DNA of 64,000 nucleotides, taken from positions 1 to 64,000 of the forward strand of contig NZ_BLPF01000002.1 of NCBI RefSeq assembly GCF_011764425.1, in the 5' to 3' direction. Source of the DNA: Phytohabitans houttuyneae (GTDB lineage: Bacteria; Actinomycetota; Actinomycetes; Mycobacteriales; Micromonosporaceae). This document shows positions 8,751 through 28,280 of this stretch, one piece after another. Made by a program: the position numbers and the translations under genes. The notes below the pieces were generated by a model, which saw nothing but the letters and a program-made list of their open reading frames with translations, had not been told where the DNA came from and searched no databases. Position 1 is the stretch's first letter; each line of letters begins with the position of its first letter.

Positions 8751-10100
8751 TCAGCCGACGGGGGCGGTCAGCGGTGCGCGGAGCGTGCCGAGGTACGGGT
8801 GCCACAGGTGGGTCGGGTCGTTTTCGACGGCGGTGACGATCGCCTTCATCTCGTTGAGCGTGGTCGGCTCGGCGTCGTCGTAGACGTCGCCCTGGAGGAG
8901 CTTGAGCACGCCGATGCGGTAGCGCGGGTCCTGCACGAACGCGGTGTAGAGGACGTTGAGTCGATAGTAGACGGAGATGAACTCGTACCAGTTCTTCACC
9001 GCGCGCCGCATCTTGCGTTCGAACTCGGCGAAGCTGCCTTTGGAGAAGTCGCCGCCGGCGGCGTGCGCGGCGATGATGTCCTTGGAGGCGATGCGGGCGC
9101 TGTTGAGCGCGATGCTGACGCCGGTGGAGAAGATCGGGTCGACGAACCGGGCGGCGTCACCGACGAGCACGAACCGGTCGCCGCAGATCTCCTTCATGAC
9201 GTAGCTGTAGTCGCCCTCGGCCTTGAACGGGCGCAGCCGCTTCGCCTTCTTCAGCGCGGCTTCGAGCTCGGGCCGGCTGCTCACGTACTCCCAGAAGAAG
9301 CCTTCACGGTCCACATTGGCCTCGGCGAAGCGGTCCTTGCGGGTGACCACGCCGATGCTGGTGACGGTATCGGTGATCGGGATCTGCCAGACCCAGGTGT
9401 CCTTGATGGGCAGGAAGTGCACGAAGATGAAGTCCTGCCGCTCGGGGTCGACCGCCACCGAGCCGCGGTCCAGCCCCTCGAACCAGGTGTGGATCGCGTA
9501 CTGGTTGAAAACCGGGTCGGAGGTCTTCAGCTTCAGTTTGCGGCCCAGCAGCGTCTGCCGGCCCGACGCGTCGACGACAAGCTTCGCCGTGAAGTCCACC
9601 TGCCGCGGGCCGAAGCGGGTGCTCACCCGCACCGCGTCCGGGTCGTCAAAGTCCACGTCGAGCACGCGGGCGCCGCTGAAAACGGTGGCGCCGCAGCTCT
9701 CGGCGTGTTTGAGCAGGATCAGGTCGAACTTGCCGCGGTCGACGTGGTACGTGTAGTCGCGATCGACCTCCGGCTGGTCCCGCTCGACGAAGGTGATCTC
9801 GGCCGCCTTGAAGCCGTGGTGCAGGCCGGTGAAGCCGTTGTGCGGCACATTGCGCGACTCGGCGGAAGTCCACGCGGCGCCGTACTTGCGGGGGAAGCCG
9901 GCCTTGTCGATCTCGTCCATCACGCCGATCTCCAGCAGCACCGGGGTGGTGGCCGGCACCAGCGACTCCCCGACGTGCTCGCGAGGAAACAGCTCCGACT
10001 CCAGCACCGCCACCGACATGCCCGCCCGGGCCAGGTAGGACGCGGTAGTCGAGCCGCCAGGGCCGCCGCCGATGACGATGACGTCATAGTCCGTGCTCAT
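8751..10100 (-). CDS. FAD-dependent halogenase 1 (carrier-protein-substrate type)
   Basis: 449 residues. The FAD motif GGGPGG is at residues 11-16, the family Lys lies in 'GFPRKYGAAW' (K72), and the halogenase signature W-x-W-x-I-P is W236-V-W238-Q-I-P. 'GDAARFVDPIFSTGV' is the second flavin region. This family uses reduced FAD, chloride and oxygen to make hypochlorous acid, which the Lys holds as the chlorinating species. The long C-terminal region, ending 'HLWHPYLGTLRAP', resembles halogenases that act on carrier-protein-bound aromatic acyl groups, such as ChlB4 in chlorothricin synthesis. Its start codon shares one base with the stop of the ACP gene upstream (TGATG), so the pair is translationally coupled. 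This suggests that ACP carries its substrate. A flavin reductase is not seen in the window. Confidence 0.92.
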   Translation of the reverse strand: MSTDYDVIVIGGGPGGSTTASYLARAGMSVAVLESELFPREHVGESLVPATTPVLLEIGVMDEIDKAGFPRKYGAAWTSAESRNVPHNGFTGLHHGFKAAEITFVERDQPEVDRDYTYHVDRGKFDLILLKHAESCGATVFSGARVLDVDFDDPDAVRVSTRFGPRQVDFTAKLVVDASGRQTLLGRKLKLKTSDPVFNQYAIHTWFEGLDRGSVAVDPERQDFIFVHFLPIKDTWVWQIPITDTVTSIGVVTRKDRFAEANVDREGFFWEYVSSRPELEAALKKAKRLRPFKAEGDYSYVMKEICGDRFVLVGDAARFVDPIFSTGVSIALNSARIASKDIIAAHAAGGDFSKGSFAEFERKMRRAVKNWYEFISVYYRLNVLYTAFVQDPRYRIGVLKLLQGDVYDDAEPTTLNEMKAIVTAVENDPTHLWHPYLGTLRAPLTAPVG

Positions 10101-10378
10101 CAGATTCCTCCGTCGGTCGCGGGTATGCCGCTCAGGGCGTCGACCATCGCGGCGATGCTGCGCACGTCCTTGAAGTTGCTGGCCACCATCTGCATCGGCG
10201 GGACGCTCACGCCGAGCTCGTCGCGGATGTAGTTGAGCAGGATGGCGGTCTTGAGCGAGTCGAGGATGCCCAGCTCGATCAGGGGTGTGCCGGCCTCGAT
10301 CAGGTCTGCCATGTCCTTGGGCCGCAGCGTGGAGTTGATGAACTCCAGCAGCTTGTCCTCGGTTTTCTCGTCGGCCAT
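10100..10378 (-). CDS. stand-alone acyl carrier protein 1
   Basis: 92 residues. The phosphopantetheine attachment site is the Ser in 'LGILDSLK' (S41), followed by a normal helix II/III pattern. Helix I is 'DKLLEFINSTL'. It lies between a KASIII-like acyltransferase (33 bases upstream) and the halogenase (1-base overlap). The likely role is to receive the 6-methylsalicyl group from the iterative PKS through a KASIII-like transferase and to present it to the halogenase. ChlB2 in the chlorothricin pathway does the same job. Assignment as a carrier protein is firm; the cargo is inferred from neighbours. Confidence 0.9.
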   Translation of the reverse strand: MADEKTEDKLLEFINSTLRPKDMADLIEAGTPLIELGILDSLKTAILLNYIRDELGVSVPPMQMVASNFKDVRSIAAMVDALSGIPATDGGI

Positions 10379-10411
10379 GTCGCTCCTCGCTGTGGTGTGC
10401 CGGACGGATGG

Positions 10412-11425
10412 TCAGCCGTACCAGGGTGGTGCGTGCCGGATACGTACGACGGCGGCGGCCACGGTCACGCCCGGCCCGTGGCCGAGCAGCAGCACGTGGT
10501 CGCCGGGTCGCAGCTCTCCGCCGGTGAGCAGGTGGTCCAGGGCGGCGATCTGATCGCTCGCACCCAGCTGCCCGACGTTCCGTGCGAACGCCCAGGTGCC
10601 GGCGGCCTCCGGGAGTCCGAGCGCGGCCAGCAGGGCGGTGACCGCGACCCGCCCGGCGGCGGGTCCGGCCACCCGGGTCACCCGGCCCGGATCGACGCCG
10701 GCTTCGGCCAGCGCCCGGTGGGCGACCTCGCGCAGCCGTGCACCGGCCTCGGCGAGCAGGGTGGGGACGTCCTTGCGGTACGCGGCGGCGCGCCGGCCGA
10801 AGTCGACGCCGCGTCCGGCGGTGGCGCCGGGCGGAAACAGCGGCTCACCGGCGCGGTACAGCTCCTCGTCCTCGGTGTAGGTGGCCACCTGGACGGCGAG
10901 CAGCTCGGCGAAGCCCGGCTCGCGGGTGAGCAGGGCCGCGGTCGCGGCGTCCCCGGCGATCTGGCCGGGCCCGGCGGACCAGCGTTTGAACAGCGGCGTG
11001 CCGAAGTTGTCCGCGGCGACCAGCAGCGCCGCCTGCCGGTCCGGGTCGGCCGTGAGGTACCGGGCCGCCAGCGCCAGCGCGCCGAACATGCCGGTGCTGC
11101 CCTGCTGTACCTGCACCGCCAGCGTGGCGCCGCCGACCAGGTGTCGCTGGAGGTGGTACTGCGGCTGCCAGCCGTCCGGGCCCTGGTGCCAGGTGTTGAC
11201 GTAGAGCAGCAGGTCGGTGTCGGCCGGGCGGCGCCCGCAGCGCTTGTACGCCTCCTGCGCCGCCAGCAGCGCCATCTCGGGTGCGGGCGTGTCGCCGGCG
11301 ACGGCCGAGCCGGCCCAGTCCTGCGCGGCCGCCTCCTCGGCCCGGTAGCGGCGTTTGGCGACTGCGGCCTCGATCCCGGTGGTGGGAGGCAGATAGCTGC
11401 CGACGGCGGCGAGGTAGGCGGTCAC
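10412..11425 (-). CDS. KASIII-like acyltransferase with degenerate active site (copy 1)
   Basis: 337 residues from GTG 11425, which overlaps the stop of the PKS gene by four bases (GTGA). It has the fold signature of the DpsC/CerJ/ChlB3 group ('NTWHQGPDGW', 'GDAATAALL', 'GEPLFPPGATAGRG'). At the nucleophile position it reads 'QGSTGMF' with Ser110 where the two paralogues in this window have 'GCNGxF'. Around residue 267 the catalytic His found in the others ('VVHNLAR', 'FMHYSRE') is replaced by 'VAGPAAG'. The Asp region 'GQLGASDQ' remains. A Ser nucleophile is known in DpsC, but DpsC keeps its His. This copy is therefore a candidate pseudo-enzyme, docking partner or altered transferase. Operon position between the iterative PKS and ACP1 suggests a role in handover of the aromatic acid. 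Confidence 0.85.
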   Translation of the reverse strand: MTAYLAAVGSYLPPTTGIEAAVAKRRYRAEEAAAQDWAGSAVAGDTPAPEMALLAAQEAYKRCGRRPADTDLLLYVNTWHQGPDGWQPQYHLQRHLVGGATLAVQVQQGSTGMFGALALAARYLTADPDRQAALLVAADNFGTPLFKRWSAGPGQIAGDAATAALLTREPGFAELLAVQVATYTEDEELYRAGEPLFPPGATAGRGVDFGRRAAAYRKDVPTLLAEAGARLREVAHRALAEAGVDPGRVTRVAGPAAGRVAVTALLAALGLPEAAGTWAFARNVGQLGASDQIAALDHLLTGGELRPGDHVLLLGHGPGVTVAAAVVRIRHAPPWYG

Positions 11426-14400
11426 ACGCCCACCACCGGACGCTCCTCGACCTCCGCCGGGGCCGCGTCGTCGGCGGCGCCGGACAGCAGCTCCACGAGG
11501 TGTTCGGTGATCGCGACGACGGTCGGCTGGTGCCACAGAAGGGTGGCCGGCAGGGGGTGGCCGAAACGGCGTTCCAGCCGGCGGCGGATCAGCAGCGTCA
11601 TCACCGAGTCCAGGCCCTGCTCCACCAGCGAGCGGCGCGGGTCCAGGGACTGCGCGGGCAGCCGCATCTCGCCGGCGATCTGGCCGCCGACCTCGTCGCG
11701 TACCCGATCGCGCAGCTGCTCCTCGGGCAGTCCGGCGAACTCCGCCGCGCCGCCCCCTCCGTCCGGCTGCTCGTCCCGCTCCACCGGGAGCGCGTCGAGC
11801 AGCGGCAGTCGCTGGACACCGGGCTCGGGCGGCAGCGTACGCAGCACCGGGTAGTGCCCACCGCCGTGCCGGGCCGCCAGGTCCCAGGCGGCGAACGCCT
11901 CGGCGGCGGCGATGTCGCCGACACCGCGAGCGCGCAGCTCCGCGTCGACCACCGCGTTGACCGCCATGCCCTGCCCGCGCCAGGACGTCCAGCCGAAGCT
12001 GAACGTGCCGGGGCAGCCGTCGTCGCGGCGGCGCGCGGCGAACGCGTCCAGATAGGCGTTGGCGGCGCCGTAGCTGGCCTGACCGGGCAGGCCGAGCAGC
12101 TGGCCGCAGGAGGAGAAGAGGACGAGGAAGTCCAGGCTGCCGGGTGGGAACAGCCTGTCCAGGACGCGGGCGCCGTCCACTTTGGGGCGCAGGACGGTAC
12201 GCATCGAGGATTCGTCCACATTGGAGATGAGGCGGTTGTCGAGGACGCCGGCGGCGTGCACCACGCCCCGGATCGGCGGCATGCCCAGCGCCTCCGGCGT
12301 CAGTGCCTGGGCGGCTCGCGCGGCGTCGGTGATGTCGAGGCTGATCAGGCGGACCGCGACACCGAGCGCCTCCAGTGCGTGCAGCTCCGGGTCCCATTCG
12401 GCGCGCGGCGGGACCGGGCTGCGACCGGCCAGCACGATCCGGCGGGCGCCGCGTTCGACCAGCCAGCGGGCCACCTCACGGCCGAGCACGCCGAGGCCAC
12501 CGGTGATCAGGTACGTGCCGTCCGGGTGGCAGCGCAGCGGCCCGGTGACCGGTTCGCGCGCGATCCGGGCCAGCCTGGCGACCGCGGCCGCGCCGTCGCG
12601 GAGCCGGACCACGTCGTCCGGGGGAGCGGCGTCCAGCACCCGCCGCAGAGTGTCCACTGTGCTCACCAGCTGCGCGGGATCGAGGTCGAGCACGCCGCCC
12701 CACAGTCGCGGGTGCTCGCCGCCGACGACCCGGCCCAGACCCCACAGGGTGGCGTGGTCGGCGTTCCGTACGTCGGCGCCGGCGGTGACCGCCCACAGCC
12801 GCGTCCCGTCCGGCGAGCCGGCGGCGAGGCGTTGGACGGCCGAGGTCAGCAGCCACGCCGCCTCTTCGGCGGTGTCGGGCGGGACCACGAGCACGTCGGC
12901 GGGGCCGGTCAGCGCGGCCAGCTCGGAGGGGTCGGTGAGGCGCGTGGCGGCCAGCCCGTCGCGGAGACCGGCCAGCAGCGGCCCGTCCGGCCCGAGCAGG
13001 AGCAGCGGTCGCGCGCTGGCGTCCGGGGCGGGCTCGGGCAGTTCCAGCGGCACCCAGGTGACCTCGTGCACGAGCTGATGCGGGCCGGTGGCGACGGCGC
13101 CGTGGCCCAGCTCGGCGTACGTCAGCCCGTCCAGCGCCGCCCGCACCCGCCCGTCGGGGTTGGCGATCAGCACGCGTACCGCGTCGCCGCCGTCCGGGTC
13201 GAGGACGACCTGGACCAGGGCGCGCTCCGGCGGCTCGCCGCTGACCCGCAGCCGGCCCACGGCGGCGACCATCCGCAGCGCCGGCTCGCCGGGATAGGCG
13301 GACGGGGCGATCGACAGCGCGGCGTCGAGCAGCGGTCCCCAGGTGGGTGGCGCGGACGCGGCGGCGTTCTCCGCGTGCGGCGCGCGTACTGCGGCGCGCA
13401 GGCCGGTGGGGGCGCGGGTCAGGGACTCCACCTGCCAGGTGAACGCCATACTCGGCACCCCGACACCGGCCAGGTGGCGCAGGATCTCGTCCGGGTCGGC
13501 CTCCTGACTTCCGGGCAGCGGCGCGCCCAGCGCGGCGGGCAGCGGCACCGGCCCGGTGAGTGCGGCGGCGTGGGTCAGCCAGGAGCCGTCCTCGTCGTCG
13601 GCGGCCCGGGACGCCAGCCGGACCCCGCCCCCGTCCTCGATGACCTGCACCTCGCGTTCCTGGTCCACGGGCAGCGGCAGGCGCAGCACCAGGTCGGTGA
13701 GCGATTCGCTCGCGCCGGCCCGCAGGAAGGTGGTGATCAGCACCGCGGCCGGCAGGATCTCCACGCCGTTGATGGTGTGGCTGCCGGGATACGGGCGGCG
13801 GCTGGCGTCCAGCAGAGTGCGCCACAGCCGCAGCGACTGCCCGGCGACCGGCACTGCCGCGCCGAGCAGGGTGTGCGAGTCGACGTCGTGTGCGAGTCCG
13901 TCGCCGCTGCCGCCGGGCATGGCCGCGCGCCAGTGGGGGCGCCGCTGCCAGGCGACCGTGGGCAGGTCGGCCAGCTCGCCGGTGGGCTGGAGCGCGCCCC
14001 AGTCCACTGGGTACCCGTGACAGAACAGCTCGCCGGCGTTTGTCAGCAGGCTCTGTGACTCGTCGGTGTCGCGGCGGAGCGTGCCGGTCACCACCGCGTC
14101 CGGGAGGGTCTCGGCGATCGAGTGGGTCACCACGGGGTGCGCGGAGATCTCCAGGAACGCGGTGTACCCGTCCTCGGCGGCGGCTCGCACCGCGGCGGCC
14201 AGGCGCACCGGGTTGCGCAGGTTCGCCGCCCAGTAGCCGCCGTCCAGCGGGCGGGTCGAGCGCGGGTCGGACATCGCGGTGGAGTAGACGGGGATGCCCG
14301 GCGCGACAGGTTCGAGGTCTTCGGCCGCCTCCGCCAGGTCGGAGAGCAGGGCGTCCATGTGCGGGCTGTGGAACGCCACGTCGGAGGCGACCCGGCGGAC

Positions 14401-16536
14401 CGACACTCCGTCCGCCTTCCACCGCTCGACCAGCTCGTCGATGGCGGCCGGGTCACCGGCAACCACTGTGGACAGTGGCGAGGACCAGATCGCCGGTACC
14501 GCGTCGGTACGGCCGGCCAGAACCGCGGCGACGTCCTCGAACGGCAGCCCGACCATGGCCATCGCGCCCTTGCCGGCGACCTGGGTGAGCAGCGCCGAGC
14601 GGCGGCAGATCAGCCGGGCGCCATCCTCCAGGCTCAGCGCGCCGGCCACCACGGCGGCGGCGATTTCGCCCACCGAGTGGCCGATCACCGCGTCGGGGCG
14701 GACGCCGGCGGCGCGCCACAGCTCGGCCAGGCCGAGCTGCATCACGAAGATCATCGTCTGGACCCGGTCAACGGTGGCCAGATCGCCGTCGGTGAGCACC
14801 TGGCGGGGGGAGAAGCCGATCTCCTCCAGGAAGATCGGCTCGAGCTGGTCGACAACGGCGGCGAACGCCGGCTGCTCGGCCAGCAGCCGCCGGCCCATGC
14901 CCGCCCACTGCGAGCCGTGTCCGGAGAAGACCCAGACCAGCCCCGCGCCCGGCTCGACGGTCGCGCCGGTGGCGGTACCGCGCTCGCTGTCCCCGGCGGC
15001 GACCGTGCGCAGGCGCGCGGCGAGCTCCCGCCGGTCGGCGGCGACCACCGCGGCCCGGTGACCCAGGTGGGTACGGCGCGCGGTCAGGGTGTGCCCGACC
15101 GAGGCGAGCGGGGTATCGGCGCCGGGGCCGTCCAGCCAGGCGGCCAGTGCCCCGGCGGACTCGCGCAGTGCCGGCTCGGAGTGCGCGGTCAGCGGGTACA
15201 GCCGCGCGGCGGGGGCGGCGGGCACGCGGGCCGGGGCAGGCTCTGCGGGAGCCTCCTCCAGGACGACGTGTGCGATCGTGCCGCCGTAGCCGAAGCCGGA
15301 CACTCCGGCCCGGCGCGGCGCGTCACCGGCGGGCCAGGCCGTGGGCTCGGTGACCACGCGCAGGCCGTTGTTCGCCCAGTCGATCGCCGGGTTGCCGGTG
15401 GTGTGGTTCAGGCTCGGCGGTATCCGCTCGTGCCGCAGCGCCAGCACCACCTTGATCAGGCTGGCCACGCCGGCGGCCGCCTCCAGGTGGCCGATGTTCG
15501 ACTTCACCGAGCCGATCAGGCACGGCTCGTCCGGCAGGCGCCCGGTGCCGTAGACGGCGCTGAGCGCGCCGGCCTCCAGCGGGTCGCCGAGGCGGGTGCC
15601 GGTGCCGTGCGCCTCCACGTAGCCGACGGAGGCCGCGTCCACCCCGGCCTGCCGGACCGCGCGGCCGATCACGTGCGCCTGGGCGGGACCGCTGGGCGCC
15701 ATGATGCCGTTCGTGCGCCCGTCCTGGTTCACCGCGCTGCCGCGGATCACGGCCAGCACCCGGTCGCCGTCGCGGCGCGCGTCCGCCAGCAGCTTGAGCA
15801 CCAGCACGCCGCACCCCTCGCCGCGGCCGTAGCCGTCGGCCGATGCGTCGAACGACTTGCACCGCCCGTCGGGGGCCATCGCCCCGGCCGCGTCCAGGGT
15901 CAGCGTCAGACCCGGGGAGACGATCAGATTGACGCCCGCGGCCAGCGCGAGCGGCCCCTCGCCGGCGCGCAGGCTCTGGCAGGCCAGGTGCACCGCGACA
16001 AGCGAGGCGGAGCAGGCGGTGTCCACGGCCATGCTCGGGCCGCGCAGGTCCAGGGCGTACGAGACGCGGTTGGCGACCGCGCACATCGCCGCGCCGATCC
16101 CGGTCCACGCCTCGATGCCGGGCAGGTCCTCCAGCAGCCGCCGGCCGTAGTCGTCGGAGCCGACACCGACGAACACGCCGGTGTCCCCGCCGGCCAGCGT
16201 GTGCGGGGGTATGCCGGCGTGCTCCAGGGCCTCCCACGCCACCTCCAGCAGCAGCCGCTGCTGGGGGTCCATCAGCGCCGCCTCGCGCGGGCTGAGGCCG
16301 AAGAACTCGGCGTCGAAGCCCTCGATGTCCGGCAGGAAGCCGCCGAAGCGGGTGGCCCGGCGCAACGTCGCGGCGACGTCGGCACCCAGCTCGGCGTACG
16401 GCGCCCAGCGCTCGCCGGGCAGCTCACCGATGCCGTCGCCGCCGCGGGCCAGCAGCTGCCAGAACCGCTCCGGCGAGTCGGCGCCGCCGGCGAACCGGCA
16501 ACCCAACCCGACCACAGCGACCGGTTCTACTCCCAT
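11422..16536 (-). CDS. iterative type I PKS, 6-methylsalicylate synthase type (KS-AT-DH-KR-ACP)
   Basis: 1704 residues from ATG 16536, which has AAGGGGG 10 bases upstream; the ATG at 16545 is too close to that site. Domains in order: KS (Cys in 'DTACSAS' near residue 175, His in 'EAHGTG' and 'SNIGH'), AT ('GHSVGE', then 'VAFH', fitting malonyl-CoA), DH/thioester-hydrolase-like (His in 'HTINGVEILP', the H-x3-G-x4-P motif), KR ('TGGLGVLG', 'VHAAGVLDN', Ser/Tyr/Asn in 'FSSCG...ASYGAANAY') and a C-terminal ACP (Ser in 'GLDSVM'). This order and size match bacterial 6-MSA synthases such as ChlB1. The KR separates it from orsellinate synthases CalO5/AviM. The expected product is 6-methylsalicylate from four malonate units, bound to the ACP. 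There is no thioesterase, which fits release by the neighbouring KASIII-like proteins. It lies in an operon with copies 2 (upstream) and 1 (downstream). Confidence 0.9.
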   Translation of the reverse strand: MGVEPVAVVGLGCRFAGGADSPERFWQLLARGGDGIGELPGERWAPYAELGADVAATLRRATRFGGFLPDIEGFDAEFFGLSPREAALMDPQQRLLLEVAWEALEHAGIPPHTLAGGDTGVFVGVGSDDYGRRLLEDLPGIEAWTGIGAAMCAVANRVSYALDLRGPSMAVDTACSASLVAVHLACQSLRAGEGPLALAAGVNLIVSPGLTLTLDAAGAMAPDGRCKSFDASADGYGRGEGCGVLVLKLLADARRDGDRVLAVIRGSAVNQDGRTNGIMAPSGPAQAHVIGRAVRQAGVDAASVGYVEAHGTGTRLGDPLEAGALSAVYGTGRLPDEPCLIGSVKSNIGHLEAAAGVASLIKVVLALRHERIPPSLNHTTGNPAIDWANNGLRVVTEPTAWPAGDAPRRAGVSGFGYGGTIAHVVLEEAPAEPAPARVPAAPAARLYPLTAHSEPALRESAGALAAWLDGPGADTPLASVGHTLTARRTHLGHRAAVVAADRRELAARLRTVAAGDSERGTATGATVEPGAGLVWVFSGHGSQWAGMGRRLLAEQPAFAAVVDQLEPIFLEEIGFSPRQVLTDGDLATVDRVQTMIFVMQLGLAELWRAAGVRPDAVIGHSVGEIAAAVVAGALSLEDGARLICRRSALLTQVAGKGAMAMVGLPFEDVAAVLAGRTDAVPAIWSSPLSTVVAGDPAAIDELVERWKADGVSVRRVASDVAFHSPHMDALLSDLAEAAEDLEPVAPGIPVYSTAMSDPRSTRPLDGGYWAANLRNPVRLAAAVRAAAEDGYTAFLEISAHPVVTHSIAETLPDAVVTGTLRRDTDESQSLLTNAGELFCHGYPVDWGALQPTGELADLPTVAWQRRPHWRAAMPGGSGDGLAHDVDSHTLLGAAVPVAGQSLRLWRTLLDASRRPYPGSHTINGVEILPAAVLITTFLRAGASESLTDLVLRLPLPVDQEREVQVIEDGGGVRLASRAADDEDGSWLTHAAALTGPVPLPAALGAPLPGSQEADPDEILRHLAGVGVPSMAFTWQVESLTRAPTGLRAAVRAPHAENAAASAPPTWGPLLDAALSIAPSAYPGEPALRMVAAVGRLRVSGEPPERALVQVVLDPDGGDAVRVLIANPDGRVRAALDGLTYAELGHGAVATGPHQLVHEVTWVPLELPEPAPDASARPLLLLGPDGPLLAGLRDGLAATRLTDPSELAALTGPADVLVVPPDTAEEAAWLLTSAVQRLAAGSPDGTRLWAVTAGADVRNADHATLWGLGRVVGGEHPRLWGGVLDLDPAQLVSTVDTLRRVLDAAPPDDVVRLRDGAAAVARLARIAREPVTGPLRCHPDGTYLITGGLGVLGREVARWLVERGARRIVLAGRSPVPPRAEWDPELHALEALGVAVRLISLDITDAARAAQALTPEALGMPPIRGVVHAAGVLDNRLISNVDESSMRTVLRPKVDGARVLDRLFPPGSLDFLVLFSSCGQLLGLPGQASYGAANAYLDAFAARRRDDGCPGTFSFGWTSWRGQGMAVNAVVDAELRARGVGDIAAAEAFAAWDLAARHGGGHYPVLRTLPPEPGVQRLPLLDALPVERDEQPDGGGGAAEFAGLPEEQLRDRVRDEVGGQIAGEMRLPAQSLDPRRSLVEQGLDSVMTLLIRRRLERRFGHPLPATLLWHQPTVVAITEHLVELLSGAADDAAPAEVEERPVVGV

Positions 16537-16576
16537 CGATGCCATGCCCCCTTCGCGCCTCGCGACGGCAACTCGA

Positions 16577-17644: not shown

Positions 17645-17678
17645 ACCATCGCCCGATGCGCTTAAGGCCCGCTAACGC
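17645..17678 (-). promoter_or_regulatory. SARP-like heptamer pair, promoter of the aromatic-acid operon
   Basis: On the minus strand, GCGTTAG (17678-17672) and CCTTAAG (17667-17661) are spaced 11 bp, followed 8 bases later by GCGATGGT. It lies about 50 bases before the GTG at 17614. The same heptamers occur at 17699, 22184 and 28395. Confidence 0.5.
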
Positions 17679-17698
17679 CCGCCTGTGCCGGCGCGCGC

Positions 17699-17736: not shown

Positions 17737-17763
17737 TGGCCCCGTATCGGCGAGGAGGCTCGT

Positions 17764-20471: not shown

Positions 20472-20475
<4 letters not shown>
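18880..20475 (-). CDS. ABC exporter permease, polyketide-antibiotic type
   Basis: 531 residues from ATG 20475, which overlaps the ATPase stop by four bases (ATGA). There are about 12 hydrophobic segments in two similar halves, each beginning with a membrane segment after a basic stretch and holding a large extracytoplasmic loop ('[25 protein letters not shown]' in the first half). This duplicated ABC-2 layout is typical of actinobacterial exporters annotated for polyketide antibiotics, such as the Rv1217c/Rv1218c pair in mycobacteria. It works with the ATPase encoded immediately upstream; the TetR gene is first in the same run. The substrate is probably the cluster product or an intermediate, giving self-resistance; this is inferred from position. 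Confidence 0.88.
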
Positions 20476-21398
<923 letters not shown>

Positions 21399-21462: not shown

Positions 21463-22107
21463 TCAGCCTGGCCCGGCCTCGGGATGCTGGCTCTTGCCGC
21501 TGAGCATGGCGTCGACGGCGGCGGCCGTCTCAGGGCTGATCATCGGGTGGGAGTGGATGTCGAGCATCGCGAGGATGATCCGCCGGTCACCCTCCGGGCC
21601 GAAGACGTCGGTGTCCAGTGCCCGGGACAGATGCTCGTGCAGCAGGGGGACACCCATCCGCATGGCGATCAGCAGGGCGGCGCGCGCCCGCCGGTCGCCG
21701 TAGGGCGCCTTTTCGCGGGACTCGTCGGCGTGCGCGAGCCACTTTTCGGTCAGCGCCACAACCTCGTCGAAGAAGCTCGAGGCGGCGGCGGAGCCGTCCA
21801 GCAGAGCACGGGCCACGTATCGCTGGAACGGGAGGATCTGCCGCCCCACCAGCAGCGGGTTGGCAGCCGCGGAGTCGCCCGCGGACTGCTCGCCGGCGCG
21901 GCGCAGGCCGGCCAGCACGTACTCGTCGCAAGCCTGACGCAGCTCCTCTTTGGAGCCGAAGTGGTGGCGCATCAGGCCGGGGGAGACGCCGGCGGTCCTG
22001 GCGATGTCCCTGACCGTGGCTCTCGCGAAGCCGTCCCGTGTGAAGTGCTCGAGGGCGGCGTCCCTGATCCGGGCGCGCGCGGTCAGATCCTCGCGGGATG
22101 GCTCCAT
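21463..22107 (-). CDS. TetR-family repressor of the ABC exporter
   Basis: 214 residues from ATG 22107. The N-terminal helix-turn-helix is complete ('[21 protein letters not shown]', then '[24 protein letters not shown]'). The remaining ~150 residues form the variable ligand-binding domain. Gene order TetR-ATPase-permease on one strand is a standard self-resistance arrangement in which the exported compound relieves repression. A candidate operator with CTATAC-type half sites lies directly upstream at 22119-22154. The divergent M28-like gene could also be affected. The ligand is unknown, with the cluster product or an intermediate being the likely choice. Confidence 0.9.
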
Positions 22108-22220: not shown

Positions 22221-22254
22221 CCGGTACCCGTCGACTGGGATCTGGAGGACCGAC

Positions 22255-23621
22255 ATGGGGGTTACCCGGGCTCCGCCGCAACGCCGACGACAGCTGAGAT
22301 GGTGGCCTGGATCGCCGAAGTGGTGGATCAGGGCATTCGCCGGCCCGGCTATCCGGCCGATGAATGGGTCGAACGGTGGGGCGCCGAGCGCTTCACCGAG
22401 ATCGGCCTGCGGGACGTGCGGCTCGAACCGGTCGAGACCACCTGCTGGCTGCCGCGCGCGCACGCCACCCTGCGGGTGTGGCCGGCCGGCCGGCCCGAGG
22501 CGGCGGTCGACTTCACCGGGCTGGCGCTGCCGTTCACCGCACCGACCGAGGGCACCGAGGGGACGCTCGCCGCCATGGCCGGGGAGAGCGACGTGAGCGG
22601 CCGGTTCGCCGTCCAGGAGATCACCCTGACCACGATCCCGCAGGCGCACATGGCCACCAAGGCCACAGCCTCGTACGATCCGGAGGGCGCCTTCGCCGAC
22701 TCGTTCCAGACGCTGCCGCTCGACCTGGTCAACGGGCTCGGCTTCGACGCCGCGATCGCCGCCGGCGCCACCGCGTACGTCGGGCTGCTCACCGGCGCGC
22801 CGTGGGAGACGCACGACTACTACTGGCCATATGACGCGACCGCCCGCCCCATCCCGGGTTTGTGGCTGTCGCCGTCCGACGGCCGTCGCCTGCTGGAGCT
22901 GATGGCGGCCGGCGAGCACGAGGCCCGTATCGTCTCGGACGCCGAGATCGTGCAGCGGACGACCCACAACGTCATCGGTACCCTGCCCGGCGCCTCCGAC
23001 CACTGGGTCGTCGTCGCGACCCACCACGACGCGCCGTGGGCCTCCGCGGTCGAGGACGGCTCCGGCATCGCGCTGGTCCTCGCCCAGGCGAAGCTGTGGG
23101 CGTCGGTACCGGCCGAACAGCGCCCGCACAACCTCATGTTCCTGCTCACGACCGGGCACATGGCCCGGGCGGCCGGCACCGAGGCGTTCGTGCGCGACCA
23201 CGCCGACCTGCTCCCCGAGCTGGTGCTCGAACTCCACCTCGAGCACGCCGCGCGGCGCTGCGTGGTCCAGGACGGCGCGCTCGTGCCCACCGCGGACCCG
23301 GAGACCCGGTGGTGGTTTACCACCCGGTCGCCCGAGCTGGAGAAGAACGTCCTGGACGCGCTGCAGGGCGAGGACGTGGGCCGCTCGTGGATCCTGCCGC
23401 CCACCGCGCTGGGGCCTATGCCGCTGACCGACGGCGCTTTCTTCCACCCGGCCGGGGTACCCCTGGTCCAGTTCATCACGCTGCCGATGTACCTGTTCGA
23501 CCCGGCCGACACGATGGACAAGGTGCACGAGGCGAGCCTGGAGCCGCTGACCCGCGCGGTGGCCCGCATCGTCCAGGGCACGGAGGGCGTCAAGCCGGAC
23601 GGGTTCCGCCCCGCCGACTGA
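22255..23621 (+). CDS. M28-peptidase-like protein with altered metal ligands; apparent frameshift at the start
   Basis: The frame from ATG 22299 encodes 440 residues but has no ribosome site. The ATG at 22255 has GGAGGA seven bases upstream but is one base out of frame. Adding one G to the G5 run at 22257-22261 joins them and gives a 455-residue protein starting 'MGGYPGSAATPTTAEM'. The first ~200 residues resemble the PA-type insert, the rest an M28 zinc-peptidase fold. The first metal region is present ('ATHHDAPW', 'EDGSG'). The usual Glu-Glu pair (x-G-E-E-x-G-L-x-G-S) reads 'TTGHMARAAGT' and the next Asp region reads 'LELHLEHAA'. Normal aminopeptidase chemistry is therefore doubtful. It shares its promoter motif with the PKS genes, so it probably belongs to the pathway. 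Its reaction is unknown. Confidence 0.7.
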
Positions 23622-24124: not shown

Positions 24125-25471
24125 CTAGAACATCGGCGCCGCGGTGGGTGCGCGCAGCGTGCCGAGGTACGGGTGCCACAGGTGGGTCGGGTCGTTCTCC
24201 ACGTCCGCCACGGTCTCCCGCATCGTGCGCAGGACCTTCGGCTCCTCCTCGTCGTACAGGTCGCCCTGCAGCAGCCGGACCACGTCCAGCCGCGAGCGCG
24301 AGTCCTGTACGAACGCGGTGAACAGGATGTTGAGCCGGTAGTAGATGGAGATGAACTCGTACCAGTTGCGCACGCCGTTGCGGATGGTCCGCTCGAACGT
24401 GGCGAACCGCGCCCGGGAGAAGTCGCCGGCCTCGTGCGCGGCGATGATGTCCCGGCTGGAGAAGCGGGCGCTGGCCATCGCCACGCTCACGCCGCTGGAG
24501 AAGATGGGGTCGACGAAGCGGGCCGCGTCACCGATCATCACGAACCGGTCGCCGGTGATCCGCCGCATCGCGTAGCTGTAGTCGGCCTCCACCGTGAACG
24601 GTCGTAGCTGCGTCGCCCGCCCCAGTGCCTCGCGGAGCTCCGGGCGGCTGGCCAGGAAATCCCAGAAGAACGCGTCGCGGTCGGTGTTCGCGGCGGCGAA
24701 CCGGTGTTTCTGGGTCACCACGCCCACGCTCGTGACGGTGTCACTGATCGGGATCTGCCACACCCAGGTGTCCTTGATGGGCAGGAAATGGATGTAGATG
24801 TAGTCCGCCTTCGCGGGGTTGGTGGTCATCGCGGACCGGTCCAGCCCTTCGAACCAGGTGTGGATGGCGTACTGGTCGAAGACCGGGTCGGGCACCTTCA
24901 CCCGCAGCTGACGGCCGAGCATCGTCTGCCGGCCGGACGCGTCGACGAGCATCCGCGCCGAGGCGGTGAACTCGCCGGCGCCGCCGCGGCAGGTGACCAC
25001 GACGCGGCTCGGGTCGTCGAAATCGGCGCGCAGCACGCGGGTGCCCTGGGACACCCGGGCGCCAAGGCTCTCCGCGTGCTCCAGCAGGATCTGGTCGAAG
25101 CGGCCGCGGTCCACGTGGTAGGTGTAGTCCCGGTCGACGCCCGGCTGGTCCCGCTCGCTGAAAAGGATCTCCGCCGCGCCGAACTCGTGCGCCAGCTTGC
25201 TGAAGTCGTTGGTGACGATGTTGCGGGAGTCGGCGGACGTCCACGCGGCGCCGTACTTGCGCGGGAAGCCGGCCTTGTCGATCTTGTCAATGGCGCCGAT
25301 CTCCCGCAGTACCCGGGTGGTGGCGGGTACGAGTGACTCGCCGACGTGCGGCCTGGGGAAGGTCTCGCTCTCGAACACCGCGACGGAGAGCCCCGCCTGG
25401 GCGAGGTACGCCGCCACGCACGAGCCGGCCGGGCCACCGCCGACGACGGCGACGTCGAACTCTGGGGACAT
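24125..25471 (-). CDS. FAD-dependent halogenase 2 (carrier-protein-substrate type)
   Basis: 448 residues and clearly paralogous to halogenase 1 over the full length. FAD motif GGGPAG at residues 11-16, Lys72 in 'GFPRKYGAAW', signature 'WVWQIP', second flavin motif 'GDAARFVDPIFSSGV', and the same C-terminal 'HLWHPYLGTLRAP'. Differences cluster in the region that shapes the substrate pocket (about residues 80-105) and in the last 100 residues. The gene starts six bases after the stop of its own ACP. Together with halogenase 1 it could add a second chlorine to the same ring, or the same reaction to another acyl group. Both halogenases appear intact by motif, so this is not an obvious case of a dead copy. 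Confidence 0.92.
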   Translation of the reverse strand: MSPEFDVAVVGGGPAGSCVAAYLAQAGLSVAVFESETFPRPHVGESLVPATTRVLREIGAIDKIDKAGFPRKYGAAWTSADSRNIVTNDFSKLAHEFGAAEILFSERDQPGVDRDYTYHVDRGRFDQILLEHAESLGARVSQGTRVLRADFDDPSRVVVTCRGGAGEFTASARMLVDASGRQTMLGRQLRVKVPDPVFDQYAIHTWFEGLDRSAMTTNPAKADYIYIHFLPIKDTWVWQIPISDTVTSVGVVTQKHRFAAANTDRDAFFWDFLASRPELREALGRATQLRPFTVEADYSYAMRRITGDRFVMIGDAARFVDPIFSSGVSVAMASARFSSRDIIAAHEAGDFSRARFATFERTIRNGVRNWYEFISIYYRLNILFTAFVQDSRSRLDVVRLLQGDLYDEEEPKVLRTMRETVADVENDPTHLWHPYLGTLRAPTAAPMF

Positions 25472-25477: not shown

Positions 25478-25762
25478 TCACTCCGTTCCGGCGGGGGTCG
25501 GCTGCTGGCCTCGCGACAGCTCGTCGACGAGCGCGCTGATGGTGTCGACGTTCTGGAAGTTCCGGGCGTTGACGTACCGGGCGGGCACCTGGGTGCCGAG
25601 CTCCTCCCGGATGAAGATCAGCAGGATCGCGGTGTTCATGGAGGTCAGCACTCCCCACTCCACCAGCGGAGTGTCCGGCCGCAGCTCGCCTTGCGGGTCG
25701 CCGTCGAGGAACCGTTCCCGGATGAACGCGGTGATCCGGGCGGACACATCGGCAACGATCAT
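25478..25762 (-). CDS. stand-alone acyl carrier protein 2 with non-canonical attachment motif
   Basis: 94 residues from ATG 25762, preceded by GGGAAGGGAG. It aligns along its length with ACP1 (helix I 'ARITAFIRERFL', helix II 'TAILLIFIREELG'), but the phosphopantetheine motif is 'WGVLTSMNT' instead of 'LGILDSLKT'. Ser41 is kept while the normally invariant preceding Asp is Thr40. The Asp contributes to recognition by phosphopantetheinyl transferases, so activation may be slow or need a particular transferase. It is located six bases before halogenase 2, which probably acts on whatever it carries. The other neighbour is the alpha/beta hydrolase, 61 bases upstream. Confidence 0.85.
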   Translation of the reverse strand: MIVADVSARITAFIRERFLDGDPQGELRPDTPLVEWGVLTSMNTAILLIFIREELGTQVPARYVNARNFQNVDTISALVDELSRGQQPTPAGTE

Positions 25763-25823: not shown

Positions 25824-26708
25824 TCAGCTGGCCAGCCGGGCGAGGTCGATCAGGTCGCTGGTCAGCCGTGCCGGCTGCTGTGCGGGCAGGTCGTGGTCGG
25901 CGTCGACGTACTCGCGAACGGCGACCGTGGCGTCCGGCATCGCGTTCGTGATCTTGATCATCCAGTCCCGGATGTCGGCGGCCCGCCTCGGCATGCCGGT
26001 GTCCGGCAGGACCGGCAGCAGCAGCACCGGCACCGCGACCGCGGGGTGCCACAGGGCCGGCGACTCCTCCCACATGCTGCGCACGATGGACATCCGCCGC
26101 TCGTCCGTGAGGCGGGAGGTGACGGCGCCGCCTGCGGAGACGGTGAAGTTTTCCATCGCCGCCTCGATCGCGCCCGCGGACCAGTCCGGGTGACTCAGGC
26201 GAAGGTAGGACCTGAGGGTGTCGACGGTGATGCTGGCCAGGCGGGGTGCGGCCATCACCTGGGCGCATTGCTCCCAGGAGTCGAAGGCCGCAGACGGGTC
26301 GATCCAGCCACCGTCCACAAGGGCCAGTGCTGCCACCCGCGCGGGGTGCTCGGCGGTGAACCGGACCGCGACGTTGCCACCCCACGAGTGTCCGGCGAGC
26401 ACCGCGCGTGTGATGCCGAGCTGCTCGTGTACGGCGGCCAGGTCGGCGGCGAAGGTGGCCGAGTCGTAGCCGGTGGGCGGGTCGTCGGAGGCGCCGTGGC
26501 CGCGCGCGTCGGGCGCGTACGCCGGGTGGCCGGCAGCGGCGAGGCGGCTGCCGACCTCGTCCCACATCAGGGCGTTCGAGGCCAGGCCGTGCACCAGCAC
26601 GAACGGCACGCCGCCGCTGGCCGGCCAGTGCCGCACGCGCAGCCGGACTCCGCCGGGTCCGGTCACGGTCAGGTCCGTGGCGGCCATGGCCTGTTCCACA
26701 TGCGACAT
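25824..26708 (-). CDS. alpha/beta-hydrolase
   Basis: 294 residues, cytoplasmic (no signal peptide). Nucleophile Ser in GHSWGG near residue 108, oxyanion strand 'FVLVHGLASNALMWDEV', 'DARGHGASDDP', and the catalytic His in 'DADHDLPAQQP' near the end. This is the common alpha/beta-hydrolase fold with a cap region in the middle ('LRSYLRLSHPDW...'). Possible jobs are hydrolysis of a misprimed acyl-ACP, of an ester intermediate, or release of the aromatic acid; none can be chosen from the sequence. It lies between the secreted DUF protein and ACP2 on the same strand, after a strong hairpin that could isolate it from the upstream genes. Confidence 0.85.
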   Translation of the reverse strand: MSHVEQAMAATDLTVTGPGGVRLRVRHWPASGGVPFVLVHGLASNALMWDEVGSRLAAAGHPAYAPDARGHGASDDPPTGYDSATFAADLAAVHEQLGITRAVLAGHSWGGNVAVRFTAEHPARVAALALVDGGWIDPSAAFDSWEQCAQVMAAPRLASITVDTLRSYLRLSHPDWSAGAIEAAMENFTVSAGGAVTSRLTDERRMSIVRSMWEESPALWHPAVAVPVLLLPVLPDTGMPRRAADIRDWMIKITNAMPDATVAVREYVDADHDLPAQQPARLTSDLIDLARLAS

Positions 26709-26790: not shown

Positions 26791-27423
26791 TCAGCGGCGC
26801 TGGACGCAGTCGAACGAGGCCGTCACCGAGCTGCCGTTGGGCAGCGTCGCGGTCTGCGAGAGCGTGAAATGTCCGGGCCCGATGACCTGCCAGTCGTCGG
26901 CGAGCTGGATCGGGAAGCCGGTGGTGACGCCGGTGGAGGTGGGCGCCGCCACCTGGCTGAGCTGGCCGGTGAAGCGCAGGTGCCCGTCCTGCCAGCCGGG
27001 CGAGGTGCCGGAGCCGTGCGAGCCCCAGTTGTCGTGGTACTGCAGGATCAGCTTGCCGGCGACCGGGTCCCAGCCGTAGATGCCCATCGCGTGCGGGTCC
27101 GGCAGCGTCGCCGAGTACAGGAACTGCCTGAGCTCGGCGTAGTAGAAATGCCCGTCGATCTGCTTGCGGACGTCCATTGTGACGCGCACCGGGCCGGTCG
27201 GATCGCCCGGCAGCCGGCACACGTGCCGGCCAAGCATGAAGTCGAGGGCACGGATCTGTTGCGGCGCCGGGAAGACGTCACTCCCGCGCGGCGGCCGCTG
27301 CGCGGGGGCCGCGGTGGCCGGCGGGACGCCCACCGCCAGCGCGCCCAGCACTATGCTGAGGACGCCCGCCACGGCACGCGCGCCGGCGCGCCGCCGGTGC
27401 CCTGTTGCCTTCGCTACGATCAC
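26791..27423 (-). CDS. secreted DUF1579-like protein
   Basis: About 210 residues. GTG 27423 was chosen because GGGAG lies seven bases upstream; the GTG at 27429 is only one base from that site. The N-terminus is a signal peptide (basic 'GHRRRAGAR', hydrophobic 'VAGVLSIVLGALAVGV', then 'PPATAAPAQ'). The mature part begins 'LDFMLGRHVCRLPG' and continues with 'GHFYYAELRQF', 'MGIYGWDPVAGKLILQYHDNWG' and a final 'ASFDCVQRR'. This is the beta-barrel pattern of DUF1579/lipocalin-like proteins ('F-x-x-G-x-W', then 'Y-x-x-x'). Two Cys could form a disulfide. Lipocalin-like folds can bind small hydrophobic ligands, but no function is proven. It is located between the methyltransferase and the hydrolase. 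Confidence 0.65.
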   Translation of the reverse strand: MIVAKATGHRRRAGARAVAGVLSIVLGALAVGVPPATAAPAQRPPRGSDVFPAPQQIRALDFMLGRHVCRLPGDPTGPVRVTMDVRKQIDGHFYYAELRQFLYSATLPDPHAMGIYGWDPVAGKLILQYHDNWGSHGSGTSPGWQDGHLRFTGQLSQVAAPTSTGVTTGFPIQLADDWQVIGPGHFTLSQTATLPNGSSVTASFDCVQRR

Positions 27424-27470
27424 TCTCACGCTCCCTTTTCGTTTTATGTGGGGCCTGGTGCCGCGCCGGC

Positions 27471-28280
27471 TCAGGGCTTGTGCGCGACCAGGATCAAGCA
27501 GCCGAAGCCGGGCACCGCGGGCAGCGCGTCCTTCGCCGCGTCCAGCACCTGCTGCACGGTGACACCGTGGGTCGCCTCGAACTCCTTGCGTACGCTGATG
27601 ATCCGGTCCAGCAGCTTCGGCAGGGTCGGCTTGGTCTGCTCCGTGACGTCGGTCAGCTCGTCGGCGACCAGGCCGGAGCCGGCCACCAGCTCCGGGTAGC
27701 GGGCGAAGCTGACCAGCGTGCTGACGACGTCACCGACCTCCTCGTCCCGGTACGAGTCGTCGATCGGGGTGACGTCGGTGAGCACCAGCCGCCCGCCCGG
27801 CCGCAGCACCCGGTGAAACTCGCGCAACGCCTTCGCCCGGTCCATGTGGTTGATGGACTCGAAGGACAGGATCGCGTCGTAGGAGCCGTCCGGGTACGGC
27901 ATCGCCATCCCGTCGGCGTACTCGAAGCGCACCGTCCCGGAGAGCCCGGCCGCGGCGGTCAGCTCGGTGGCCTGCTCGACCTGCTGGCGGCTGATGGTGA
28001 TGCCGAGCACGTGGGCGCCGGTCACCGTGGCCACCCGGCGCGCCGGCTCGCCGATGCCGCAGCCGACGTCCAGCACCCGGTCGCCCGGTCCCACGCCGAG
28101 CCGCTCGATGAGCAGGTCGGTGAAGTGGTCGGCGGCCTCCTGCGGGCTGCGCCGGTCCTGCGGGCCGTCCCAGTACCCGATGTGGAAGTTGTCACCCCAG
28201 GCCATCCGCAGCAGCGGGCCCAGGGCGCTGTAGTAGTCGGCGACCTCGCCGGCCGACGGCACGGCTTGCTGGGCTGTCAT
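27471..28280 (-). CDS. SAM-dependent methyltransferase (class I)
   Basis: 269 residues from ATG 28280 with GGGAGG at four bases. Motif I 'VLDVGCGIGEPARRVA', motif II region 'MPYPDGSYDAILSFESINHM', motif III 'LRPGGRLVLTDVTP'. The N-terminal 'YYSALGPLLRMAWGDNFHIGYWDG' is typical of small-molecule O- or C-methyltransferases of the RebM/tocopherol-methyltransferase type. The acceptor could be the phenol of the chlorinated 6-methylsalicyl unit (chlorothricin carries an O-methyl there) or a sugar or aglycone hydroxyl. It leads the minus-strand run that ends in halogenase 2 and is divergent from PKS gene A, sharing the 170-base regulatory region. Confidence 0.88.
   Translation of the reverse strand: MTAQQAVPSAGEVADYYSALGPLLRMAWGDNFHIGYWDGPQDRRSPQEAADHFTDLLIERLGVGPGDRVLDVGCGIGEPARRVATVTGAHVLGITISRQQVEQATELTAAAGLSGTVRFEYADGMAMPYPDGSYDAILSFESINHMDRAKALREFHRVLRPGGRLVLTDVTPIDDSYRDEEVGDVVSTLVSFARYPELVAGSGLVADELTDVTEQTKPTLPKLLDRIISVRKEFEATHGVTVQQVLDAAKDALPAVPGFGCLILVAHKP

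What the first reader, a model, noticed from the sequence alone, without database searches (positions are those of the whole stretch)
8751..28280. Duplicated halogenase/ACP pairs and three KASIII-like transferases around one 6-MSA synthase
Seen: two paralogous FAD halogenases, each coupled to its own stand-alone ACP, one iterative KS-AT-DH-KR-ACP PKS and three DpsC/CerJ-type proteins. Known: chlorothricin uses one 6-MSA synthase, one ACP, one halogenase and two KASIII-like proteins. Inference: the aromatic unit is either dichlorinated in two carrier-bound stages, with acyl transfer between ACP1 and ACP2, or two different acyl groups are halogenated. Stage-specific carriers for successive halogenations would be a new arrangement.
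Basis: partly seen in the sequence, partly recalled or inferred. Interest (0 to 1): 0.8.

Follow-up and report, generated by a model that had tools for sequence, protein, structure and literature searches.

The report
Hybrid chlorination cassettes in polyether cluster
A soil actinobacterium appears to carry genes for a polyether ionophore with a chlorinated salicylate arm, and its two chlorinating-enzyme/carrier pairs are not copies of each other: one belongs to the salicylate kind and the other is kin to enzymes that chlorinate pyrrole.

Summary
The genes are present as described: two ChlB4-like halogenases, each beside its own carrier, one 6-MSA-type iterative PKS and three KASIII-like proteins. 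Three points change the reading. (1) The pairs are not duplicates. hal1/acp1 belong to the chlorothricin-type 6-MSA lineage; hal2/acp2, and the acyltransferase kas3, have their nearest kin in pyrrole pathways. A hal1+hal2 clade is rejected (p-AU 1.1e-46). Proline-activation and oxidation genes, which accompany those kin, were not found in C2:1-180k; the genome's only close copies lie in a separate cassette. (2) Two of the three KASIII proteins keep the Cys-His-Asp triad; kas1 reads Ser-Gln-Asp. (3) The scaffold is a polyether: MonCI- and MonBI/II-like enzymes, KSQ loading, about 12 extension modules. Known polyethers carry 6-methylsalicylate (cationomycin, alpha-770) or an aromatic ring with two chlorines (CP-54,883), so dichlorination is plausible. 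P. suffuscus (same genus) has the same cluster with hal1, acp1 and kas3 but no acp2, hal2 or kas1. Best reading: 6-MSA is chlorinated on ACP1, passes to ACP2 for a second chlorination by Hal2, and is grafted by kas3. The ACP1-to-ACP2 step is inferred and has no intact dedicated enzyme. Rivals: a chloropyrrole supplied in trans, or a relic pair.

The parts
8751..10100 (-). hal1: ChlB4-lineage FADH2 halogenase, counterpart of P. suffuscus C1:16566-17909 (78%)
10100..10378 (-). acp1: stand-alone carrier of the 6-MSA type (ELGILDSLKTA)
   Evidence: set with four 6-MSA-locus carriers and the P. suffuscus one, 100/92
10412..11425 (-). kas1: KASIII-like protein with degenerate active site (Ser-Gln-Asp); GTG start overlaps the pks6 stop
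11422..16545 (-). pks6: iterative KS-AT-DH-KR-ACP PKS, putative 6-methylsalicylic acid synthase
16577..17614 (-). kas2: ChlB3-like acyltransferase with intact triad, putative pks6-to-ACP1 loader
17656..18831 (+). kas3: acyltransferase with intact triad, sister to P. suffuscus kas3, then to KAS of pyrrole cassettes (start may be GTG 17764)
18880..20637 (-). putative ABC transporter membrane protein (Pfam match below the curated cut-off)
   Evidence: 59% over 511 aa in the P. suffuscus cluster
20472..21398 (-). ABC transporter ATPase (DrrA-like)
   Evidence: 73% in the P. suffuscus cluster
21463..22107 (-). TetR regulator
22299..23621 (+). M28-family peptidase, counterpart in the P. suffuscus cluster (59%)
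24125..25471 (-). hal2: halogenase of a pyrrolyl-carrier lineage (79% to S. gossypii L030)
25478..25762 (-). acp2: stand-alone carrier with a signature (EWGVLTSMNTA) like those of pyrrole loci
25824..26708 (-). alpha/beta hydrolase, counterpart in P. suffuscus (60%)
26791..27429 (-). protein of unknown family, secreted by the look of its N-terminus; counterpart in P. suffuscus (53%)
27471..28280 (-). SAM methyltransferase, counterpart in P. suffuscus (62%)
28450..64000 (+). modular polyether PKS: KSQ-AT-ACP loading, then modules 1-6 (module 6 crosses the window end; the cluster continues to about C2:115k)

Best explanation
A Phytohabitans polyether-ionophore cluster whose salicylate ester arm is made by a hybrid set of acyl-handling genes. 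Shown by sequence: polyether scaffold genes; a chlorothricin-type 6-MSA cassette (pks6, kas2, acp1, hal1); and a second set (hal2, acp2, kas3) whose nearest kin belong to pyrrole pathways, without the proline-supply genes. The three need not have come together: the nearest hal2/acp2 kin lie beside modular PKSs with no KASIII found in the DNA held, the nearest kas3 kin in cassettes that include a KASIII. Inferred mechanism: pks6 makes 6-MSA; kas2 moves it to ACP1; Hal1 chlorinates it as ChlB4 does; the acyl group moves to ACP2, where Hal2 adds a second chlorine; kas3 grafts it onto a hydroxyl of the polyether. ACP2 would be an adapter between the 6-MSA module and an acyltransferase of pyrrole-pathway kinship. 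kas1 is most likely non-catalytic.
For: Polyether: MonCI-like epoxidase (1e-177), MonBI/II-like protein (3.6e-54) with a second SnoaL-like gene beside it, KSQ loading, 12 extension modules plus a terminal KS, Na/H exchanger and thioesterase. The same cluster is in P. suffuscus. 6-MSA arm: kin of hal1, acp1 and pks6. Second set: hal2 in one set with four loci that have both proline-type genes (100/97; 98*), carrier signature, kas3 100/99 with the G197 and G213 KAS. No close proA/proDH in C2:1-180k; the only close copies (55%, 54%) are at C1:2134-2139k, so 6-MSA is the only aromatic acyl supply that I found in the cluster. hal2/acp2 end a run with methyltransferase, unknown and hydrolase genes (gaps 41, 82, 61, 6 bp), all three with counterparts in P. 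suffuscus. The hal2 dN/dS against three relatives (0.25-0.29) resembles three pairs presumed functional (0.24-0.32), which speaks against long decay (pairwise, rough). The 6-MSA/pyrrole label changes at least twice on starred branches of the halogenase tree, so substrate switches seem to have happened. Product precedents: CP-54,883 with two chlorines on its ring (PMC9144361 passage); alpha-770 and cationomycin with 6-methylsalicylate at C-3 and the same C27 chain, alpha-770 a likely tridecaketide (PMC6023020 passages).
Against: No competent dedicated enzyme for ACP1-to-ACP2: kas1 lacks Cys and His. At 14 columns that separate the ten pyrrole relatives from nine 6-MSA-type rows, hal2 reads as pyrrole at 10 and as 6-MSA at 4. 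In P. suffuscus kas3 lies near an A-PCP, a B12-radical SAM protein and an acyl-CoA dehydrogenase, so kas3 there may carry another acyl group. A two-halogenase cluster can give a monohalogenated product (venemycin). PMC9573744 places ChlB4 after grafting. PMC6023020 attributes the 6-methylsalicylate of cationomycin and alpha-770 to a type III PKS (its own inference), unlike the iterative type I PKS here.
Confidence: 0.4

Rival explanations
1. Two acyl groups: hal1/acp1 handle chloro-6-MSA, while hal2/acp2/kas3 handle a chlorinated pyrrole-2-carboxyl group whose proline activation and oxidation are supplied in trans by the separate cassette at C1:2134-2139k.
For: The nearest kin of hal2, acp2 and kas3 are in pyrrole pathways. 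In Nonomuraea zeae L077 KAS, both proline-type genes, carrier and halogenase lie beside homologues of this cluster's Na/H exchanger and carboxyltransferase; in G042 halogenase, exchanger, KAS and both proline-type genes lie within 16 kb (no carrier above the cut used); in G197 both proline-type genes, KAS and carrier lie beside a MonB-like pair. hal2 keeps pyrrole-type residues at 10 of 14 columns.
Against: No close proA or proDH in C2:1-180k. The C1 cassette already has its own carrier, halogenase and KAS, and cross-supply would need its adenylating enzyme to charge a foreign carrier.
Confidence: 0.28
2. Relic or dispensable pair: after a change of acyl supply from pyrrole to 6-MSA, hal2/acp2 (and kas1) remain but are not needed; the product is monochlorinated by hal1.
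For: P. suffuscus keeps the cluster without acp2, hal2 or kas1. kas1 has lost its triad. Venemycin precedent.
Against: hal2 and acp2 are intact, with high third-position GC; hal2 keeps its motifs and constraint like that of relatives; the pair sits in a tight run with polyether genes.
Confidence: 0.18
3. Late chlorination: one or both halogenases act on the salicyl ester already attached to the polyether, and the second carrier has only a transfer role.
For: PMC9573744 states that ChlB4 acts on the grafted molecule (passage). The Nucisporomicrobium flavum two-halogenase cluster shows no carrier hit beside either halogenase.
Against: PMC8407142 describes ChlB4 as acting on tethered salicylate; PltA and Mpy16, the next solved relatives, act on carrier-bound pyrrole (recalled). 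Each halogenase here is paired with its own carrier gene.
Confidence: 0.1

Closest known systems
Chlorothricin 6-MSA cassette (ChlB1-ChlB6, Streptomyces antibioticus; roles from PMC9573744 passages)
   Same: iterative PKS, stand-alone ACP, ChlB4-type halogenase, KASIII-like acyltransferases for loading and grafting; ChlB3 triad kept in kas2 and kas3
   Different: polyether genes instead of a spirotetronate; a second halogenase/carrier pair of other lineage; a third, triad-less KASIII; grafting candidate kas3 groups with KAS of pyrrole cassettes (ChlB6 itself was not compared)
Cationomycin / alpha-770 / CP-54,883 polyethers
   Same: module count fits the likely tridecaketide alpha-770, which shares its C27 chain and 6-methylsalicyl ester with cationomycin (PMC6023020); CP-54,883 has an aromatic ring with two chlorines (PMC9144361)
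   Different: one search for a cationomycin gene cluster found one paper, a review whose searched passages give none; methyl pattern and product here not determined; PMC6023020 assumes a type III PKS for the arm
Pyrrolyl-carrier halogenase cassettes (S. gossypii L030, N. zeae L077; PltL/PltA type)
   Same: nearest kin of hal2 and acp2 (L030 and allies); same carrier-halogenase pairing
   Different: no proline adenylating enzyme or dehydrogenase found in the cluster; the modular PKS starts with KSQ, not an aromatic starter
Phytohabitans suffuscus NBRC 105367 polyether cluster (C1:16k-130k)
   Same: counterpart polyether genes, hal1/acp1, pks6, a kas2-like protein, kas3
   Different: no acp2, hal2 or kas1; its second halogenase is of another lineage, split over two frames and without a carrier beside it; an A-PCP/B12-radical SAM set lies near kas3

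Membership tests
ChlB4/PltA-type FADH2 halogenase (both) | GxGxxG, catalytic Lys region, WxWxIP, FxxPxFSxG | tested here: met
   best solved relative ChlB4, then Mpy16 and PltA
ChlB4/PltA-type FADH2 halogenase (both) | acts on a carrier-bound substrate | not testable with these tools
   an adjacent carrier gene for each is suggestive only
6-MSA synthase (bacterial, iterative type I) | single KS-AT-DH-KR-ACP protein without thioesterase, KR with S-Y-N | tested here: met
   58-63% to the PKSs of eight other loci with halogenases of this family
6-MSA synthase (bacterial, iterative type I) | product is 6-methylsalicylate | not testable with these tools
   needs expression
ChlB3/CerJ-type KASIII acyltransferase: kas2 and kas3 | Cys113-His296-Asp301 triad (ChlB3 numbering, PMC9573744) | tested here: met
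ChlB3/CerJ-type KASIII acyltransferase: kas1 | Cys113-His296-Asp301 triad | tested here: not met
   Ser-Gln-Asp; 37 of 38 rows keep C/H/D and kas1 is the exception
Polyether ionophore cluster | MonCI-type epoxidase and MonB-type epoxide hydrolases with a modular PKS | tested here: met
Pyrrolyl-carrier (prolyl) cassette | proline adenylating enzyme plus prolyl-carrier dehydrogenase near the pair | tested here: not met
   none close in C2:1-180k; only close copies at C1:2134-2139k
Pyrrolyl-carrier (prolyl) cassette | halogenase phylogeny | tested here: met
   hal2 100/97 with four such loci
Pyrrolyl-carrier (prolyl) cassette | carrier phylogeny | tested here: inconclusive
   signature and nearest rows fit, but acp2 is unresolved within a 95/90 group that also holds the 6-MSA carriers
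Cationomycin/CP-54,883-class polyether | tridecaketide-length PKS plus salicylate-type ester | tested here: inconclusive
   12 extension modules plus loading fit, but methyl pattern, ring system and product were not compared

The most novel reading that the evidence does not exclude
A second carrier/halogenase pair of chloropyrrole kinship has been re-aimed at a salicylate: ACP2 acts as an adapter that lets a pyrrole-pathway-type O-acyltransferase (kas3) accept a 6-MSA unit, and each carrier presents the ring to its own halogenase, so the two chlorinations are separated by carrier.
Probability: 0.33. Interest if true: 0.65.

Novelty: new variant of a known kind. Interest (0 to 1): 0.5.

Why it matters
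A chlorinated aryl polyether, CP-54,883, was reported in 1987 (reference seen); in the held library my searches turned up no gene cluster for one, so this is a candidate cluster for that kind of product. It also offers a natural test of whether a halogenase and carrier of pyrrole kinship can serve a benzenoid substrate, and whether a carrier can be an adapter between two acyl systems. The triad-less KASIII, kept in a tight operon with the 6-MSA-type synthase, poses its own question.

Tried and rejected
Recent in-cluster duplication of the pair: rejected by tree and AU test. Spirotetronate product by analogy with chlorothricin: set aside because MonCI- and MonB-like genes are present and a HAD-type gene sits with acyl-CoA dehydrogenase, 3-hydroxyacyl-CoA dehydrogenase and O-methyltransferase genes, which I read as a methoxymalonyl set (tetronate genes were not searched for as such). 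Pyrrole-primed modular PKS: not favoured, because the first PKS opens with KSQ-AT-ACP. Residue switch in hal2 towards 6-MSA: looked for, not seen. Solved-structure hits of the carriers as a discriminator: useless, both ACPs hit PltL. Scan of viral contigs with acp2: no relative.

Two-halogenase clusters elsewhere: in the window's family 19 of 300 genomes have a match at 1e-100 and four have two or more: G000, G191 (15 kb apart), G079 (two 103 kb apart that I place in one cluster) and G042 (over 3 Mb apart). In the family of G002, 24 of 341 have a match at 1e-170, each with one. In both searches only the best 4-5 candidates per genome were scored, so second copies may be missed. In one search, 7 of 22 genomes reached from loci have two or more, but on one contig only in G008 (same organism as G191) and G017 (same as G079). 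The G191 pair (N. flavum) lies among oxygenase, SDR and cyclase-like genes (my reading of N-termini and SDR hits, no family search), with no carrier or 6-MSA PKS hit. kas3 in the wider class: 8 of 394 genomes at 1e-80, none with an identity above 46% besides the own genome. Structure model of kas1: mean pLDDT 81, pTM 0.85, with segments 81-84, 143-150 and 196-207 below 50; no fold search was run.

Dropped or hand-set rows: three divergent KAS rows (all C/H/D) were left out from then on; window kas3 was missing through a naming slip and was added. Five duplicate halogenase rows were left out; the same duplicates and carriers under 60 aa were left out of the carrier tree (66 rows). Two rows that the script labelled 6MSAS (L049, L070; long KS matches that I read as modular PKS) were taken out of that group by hand, and three rows with both labels (L053, L055, L064) were counted as pyrrole. 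Labels rest on neighbours in the DNA held, mostly 10 kb each side; 49 of 105 halogenase rows have none. The P. suffuscus second halogenase entered the trees only as its longer piece.


Full report
WHAT IS THERE. On the minus strand a run kas2 - pks6 - kas1 - acp1 - hal1 spans 17614 to 8751 with gaps of 31, -4, 33 and -1 bp; a second minus-strand run mt - unknown - hydrolase - acp2 - hal2 spans 28280 to 24125 with gaps of 41, 82, 61 and 6 bp; kas3 stands alone on the plus strand. pks6 has KS, AT, DH, KR and ACP matches in Pfam and no thioesterase. acp2 has no Pfam match at E 0.001 and rests on weaker carrier models and on its relatives. Both halogenases match ChlB4 best among solved proteins, then Mpy16 and PltA; all three KASIII-like proteins match ChlB3 best.

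THE CLUSTER IS A POLYETHER CLUSTER. Beyond the window, C2:79278-80702 matches MonCI (E 1e-177) and C2:80808-81302 matches MonBI/MonBII and LasB (3.6e-54), with a second SnoaL-like gene beside it. The first modular PKS opens with a KSQ (VDTAQSSS)-AT-ACP loading module. The domain table gives 7 extension modules on the plus strand and 5 on the minus strand, plus a terminal KS with a partial AT; taking that last protein as a chain-release KS is inference from other polyethers (recalled). O-methyltransferase, HAD, acyl-CoA dehydrogenase and 3-hydroxyacyl-CoA dehydrogenase genes, a Na/H exchanger, SARP, LuxR-type regulator, thioesterase and carboxyltransferase genes are also there; not every gene of C2:64-115k was annotated. 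P. suffuscus C1:16k-130k holds counterparts: MonCI-like 63%, MonB-like 49-58%, Na/H exchanger 68%, carboxyltransferase 62-77%, the HAD/dehydrogenase/methyltransferase set 67-75%, pks6 58%, methyltransferase 62%, ABC ATPase 73%. Cationomycin and alpha-770 are polyethers with the same C27 chain and a 6-methylsalicylate ester at C-3; alpha-770 is called a likely tridecaketide (PMC6023020, passages), though that paper assumes a type III PKS for the arm. CP-54,883 has an aromatic ring with two chlorines (PMC9144361, passage). I did not compare methyl patterns or predict the product.

THE PAIRS ARE NOT DUPLICATES. In a tree of 105 halogenases hal1 pairs with P. suffuscus C1:16566 (99*) and lies near ChlB4 and halogenases beside 6-MSA-type PKSs; hal2 lies in a set of 11 whose other 10 rows all have proline-type adenylating and dehydrogenase genes nearby (98*). 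A careful tree of 37 rows gives hal2 with four such rows at 100/97, and holding hal1 with hal2 is rejected (p-AU 1.1e-46; with the P. suffuscus counterpart added, 2.8e-6). The carriers point the same way. acp1 (ELGILDSLKTA) groups with four 6-MSA-locus carriers and the P. suffuscus one (100/92); the carriers of 7 of 7 labelled 6-MSA loci with a carrier read SL followed by K or R. acp2 (EWGVLTSMNTA) is nearest by path to carriers of pyrrole loci, and those of 10 of 10 nearest hal2 relatives read LNSMN. The signature is not perfect: three pyrrole-labelled loci (L015, L019, L025) read DSLR. The carrier tree has few columns and acp2 itself is unresolved within a larger 95/90 group.

kas3 GROUPS WITH KAS OF PYRROLE CASSETTES. 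Searching kas3 in 354 genomes of the family gave 27 with a match at 1e-80, the best outside the genus being G197 (54%), G213 (52%) and G136 (51%). In G197 the order is dehydrogenase - KAS - adenylating enzyme - carrier, next to a MonB-like pair; in G213 KAS - dehydrogenase - adenylating enzyme - carrier, with no polyether gene hit in the 60 kb fetched. kas3, P. suffuscus kas3 and these two form one clade (100/99). By contrast the nearest hal2/acp2 kin (L029, L030, L033, L078) lie beside modular PKSs with no KASIII hit in the DNA held, so hal2/acp2 and kas3 need not share one source. Proline-type adenylating and dehydrogenase genes were not found in C2:1-180k (the only dehydrogenase hit is the 28% one of the polyether set), and the genome's only close copies (55% and 54%) lie in a separate cassette at C1:2134-2139k with its own carrier, halogenase and KASIII. 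The window starts at the contig end, so a gap cannot be wholly excluded.

kas1 IS DEGENERATE. ChlB3 uses Cys113, His296 and Asp301, and C113A abolishes transfer (PMC9573744, passages). kas2 and kas3 keep all three; kas1 reads Ser, Gln, Asp and is the only one of 38 rows to do so. DpsC works with Ser together with two histidines (same paper); kas1 has Gln where ChlB3 has His296, and I did not place the other DpsC histidine. The frame of kas1 is intact and its start overlaps the pks6 stop; the model keeps a confident fold apart from three short segments. A non-catalytic partner role is possible but untested.

HOW IT MOST LIKELY WORKS. Loading of 6-MSA from pks6 to ACP1 by kas2 and chlorination by Hal1 follow the chlorothricin precedent, with the caveat that print disagrees on whether ChlB4 acts before or after grafting. 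The step to ACP2, a second chlorination by Hal2 and grafting by kas3 are inferred. Reasons to think Hal2/ACP2 still work: intact motifs; dN/dS of 0.25-0.29 against three relatives, compared with 0.24-0.32 for three pairs presumed functional (pairwise NG86, rough, and much of it predates any recruitment); and co-location with polyether genes. Reasons for doubt: hal2 keeps pyrrole-type residues at 10 of 14 discriminating columns; no intact third transferase; and P. suffuscus has the cluster without the pair. In P. suffuscus a second halogenase beside pks6 lies outside the hal2 set and is split over two frames, no second carrier of this kind was found in C1:1-160k, and near kas3 lie an A-PCP protein, a B12-radical SAM protein, an acyl-CoA dehydrogenase and a thioesterase, so kas3 may serve another donor. 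Pyrrole-type gene sets beside homologues of this cluster's exchanger occur in Nonomuraea zeae (L077) and G042, which keeps the two-acyl rival alive.

NOVELTY. Searches of the held library for polyether ionophore, halogenase and 6-methylsalicylic, two-halogenase polyether or 6-MSA clusters and a cationomycin gene cluster showed me no description of this arrangement; I saw listings and passages only, lists were cut (20 of 75 papers), and subscription journals are mostly not held. The parts are known kinds; the combination is a new variant.

Noticed in passing
L079, L083-L088 (the seven Acidobacteria-labelled loci among the 80 kept): All seven carry two adjacent halogenases of this family in tandem, with no carrier hit beside them; in six of the seven most copies fall into two parallel clades, as after an old tandem duplication, while the two of L079 pair with each other.
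   Followed up: no
P. suffuscus C1:122282-130116 (L125): Near kas3 lie an A-PCP protein, a B12-binding radical SAM protein, an acyl-CoA dehydrogenase and a thioesterase, possibly a second amino-acid-derived acyl group for the polyether.
   Followed up: partly
P. suffuscus C1:120863-122205: The halogenase beside the 6-MSA-type PKS is split over two reading frames.
   Followed up: partly
Nonomuraea zeae L077:5866-21117: KASIII, both proline-type genes, carrier and halogenase beside Na/H exchanger, carboxyltransferase, SARP and LuxR homologues of this cluster: perhaps a chloropyrrole polyether.
   Followed up: partly
G197:C89 (L163), locus 17884-23783: Thioesterase, proline-type dehydrogenase, KAS, adenylating enzyme and carrier beside a MonB-like pair; the genome's best match to these halogenases is distant and on another contig.
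   Followed up: partly
window about 38541-38607, 55434-55490 and 56407-56425: PKS domains change frame inside KS or AT; perhaps assembly indels.
   Followed up: no
Nucisporomicrobium flavum L016/L022 (G191:C23:72156 and 88462): Two halogenases 15 kb apart with no carrier or 6-MSA PKS hit, among oxygenase, SDR and cyclase-like genes.
   Followed up: partly
own genome C1:2134331-2139546 (L096): Separate cassette of carrier, halogenase, dehydrogenase, KASIII and proline-type adenylating enzyme, with adenylation-domain hits in the next stretch (L097).
   Followed up: partly
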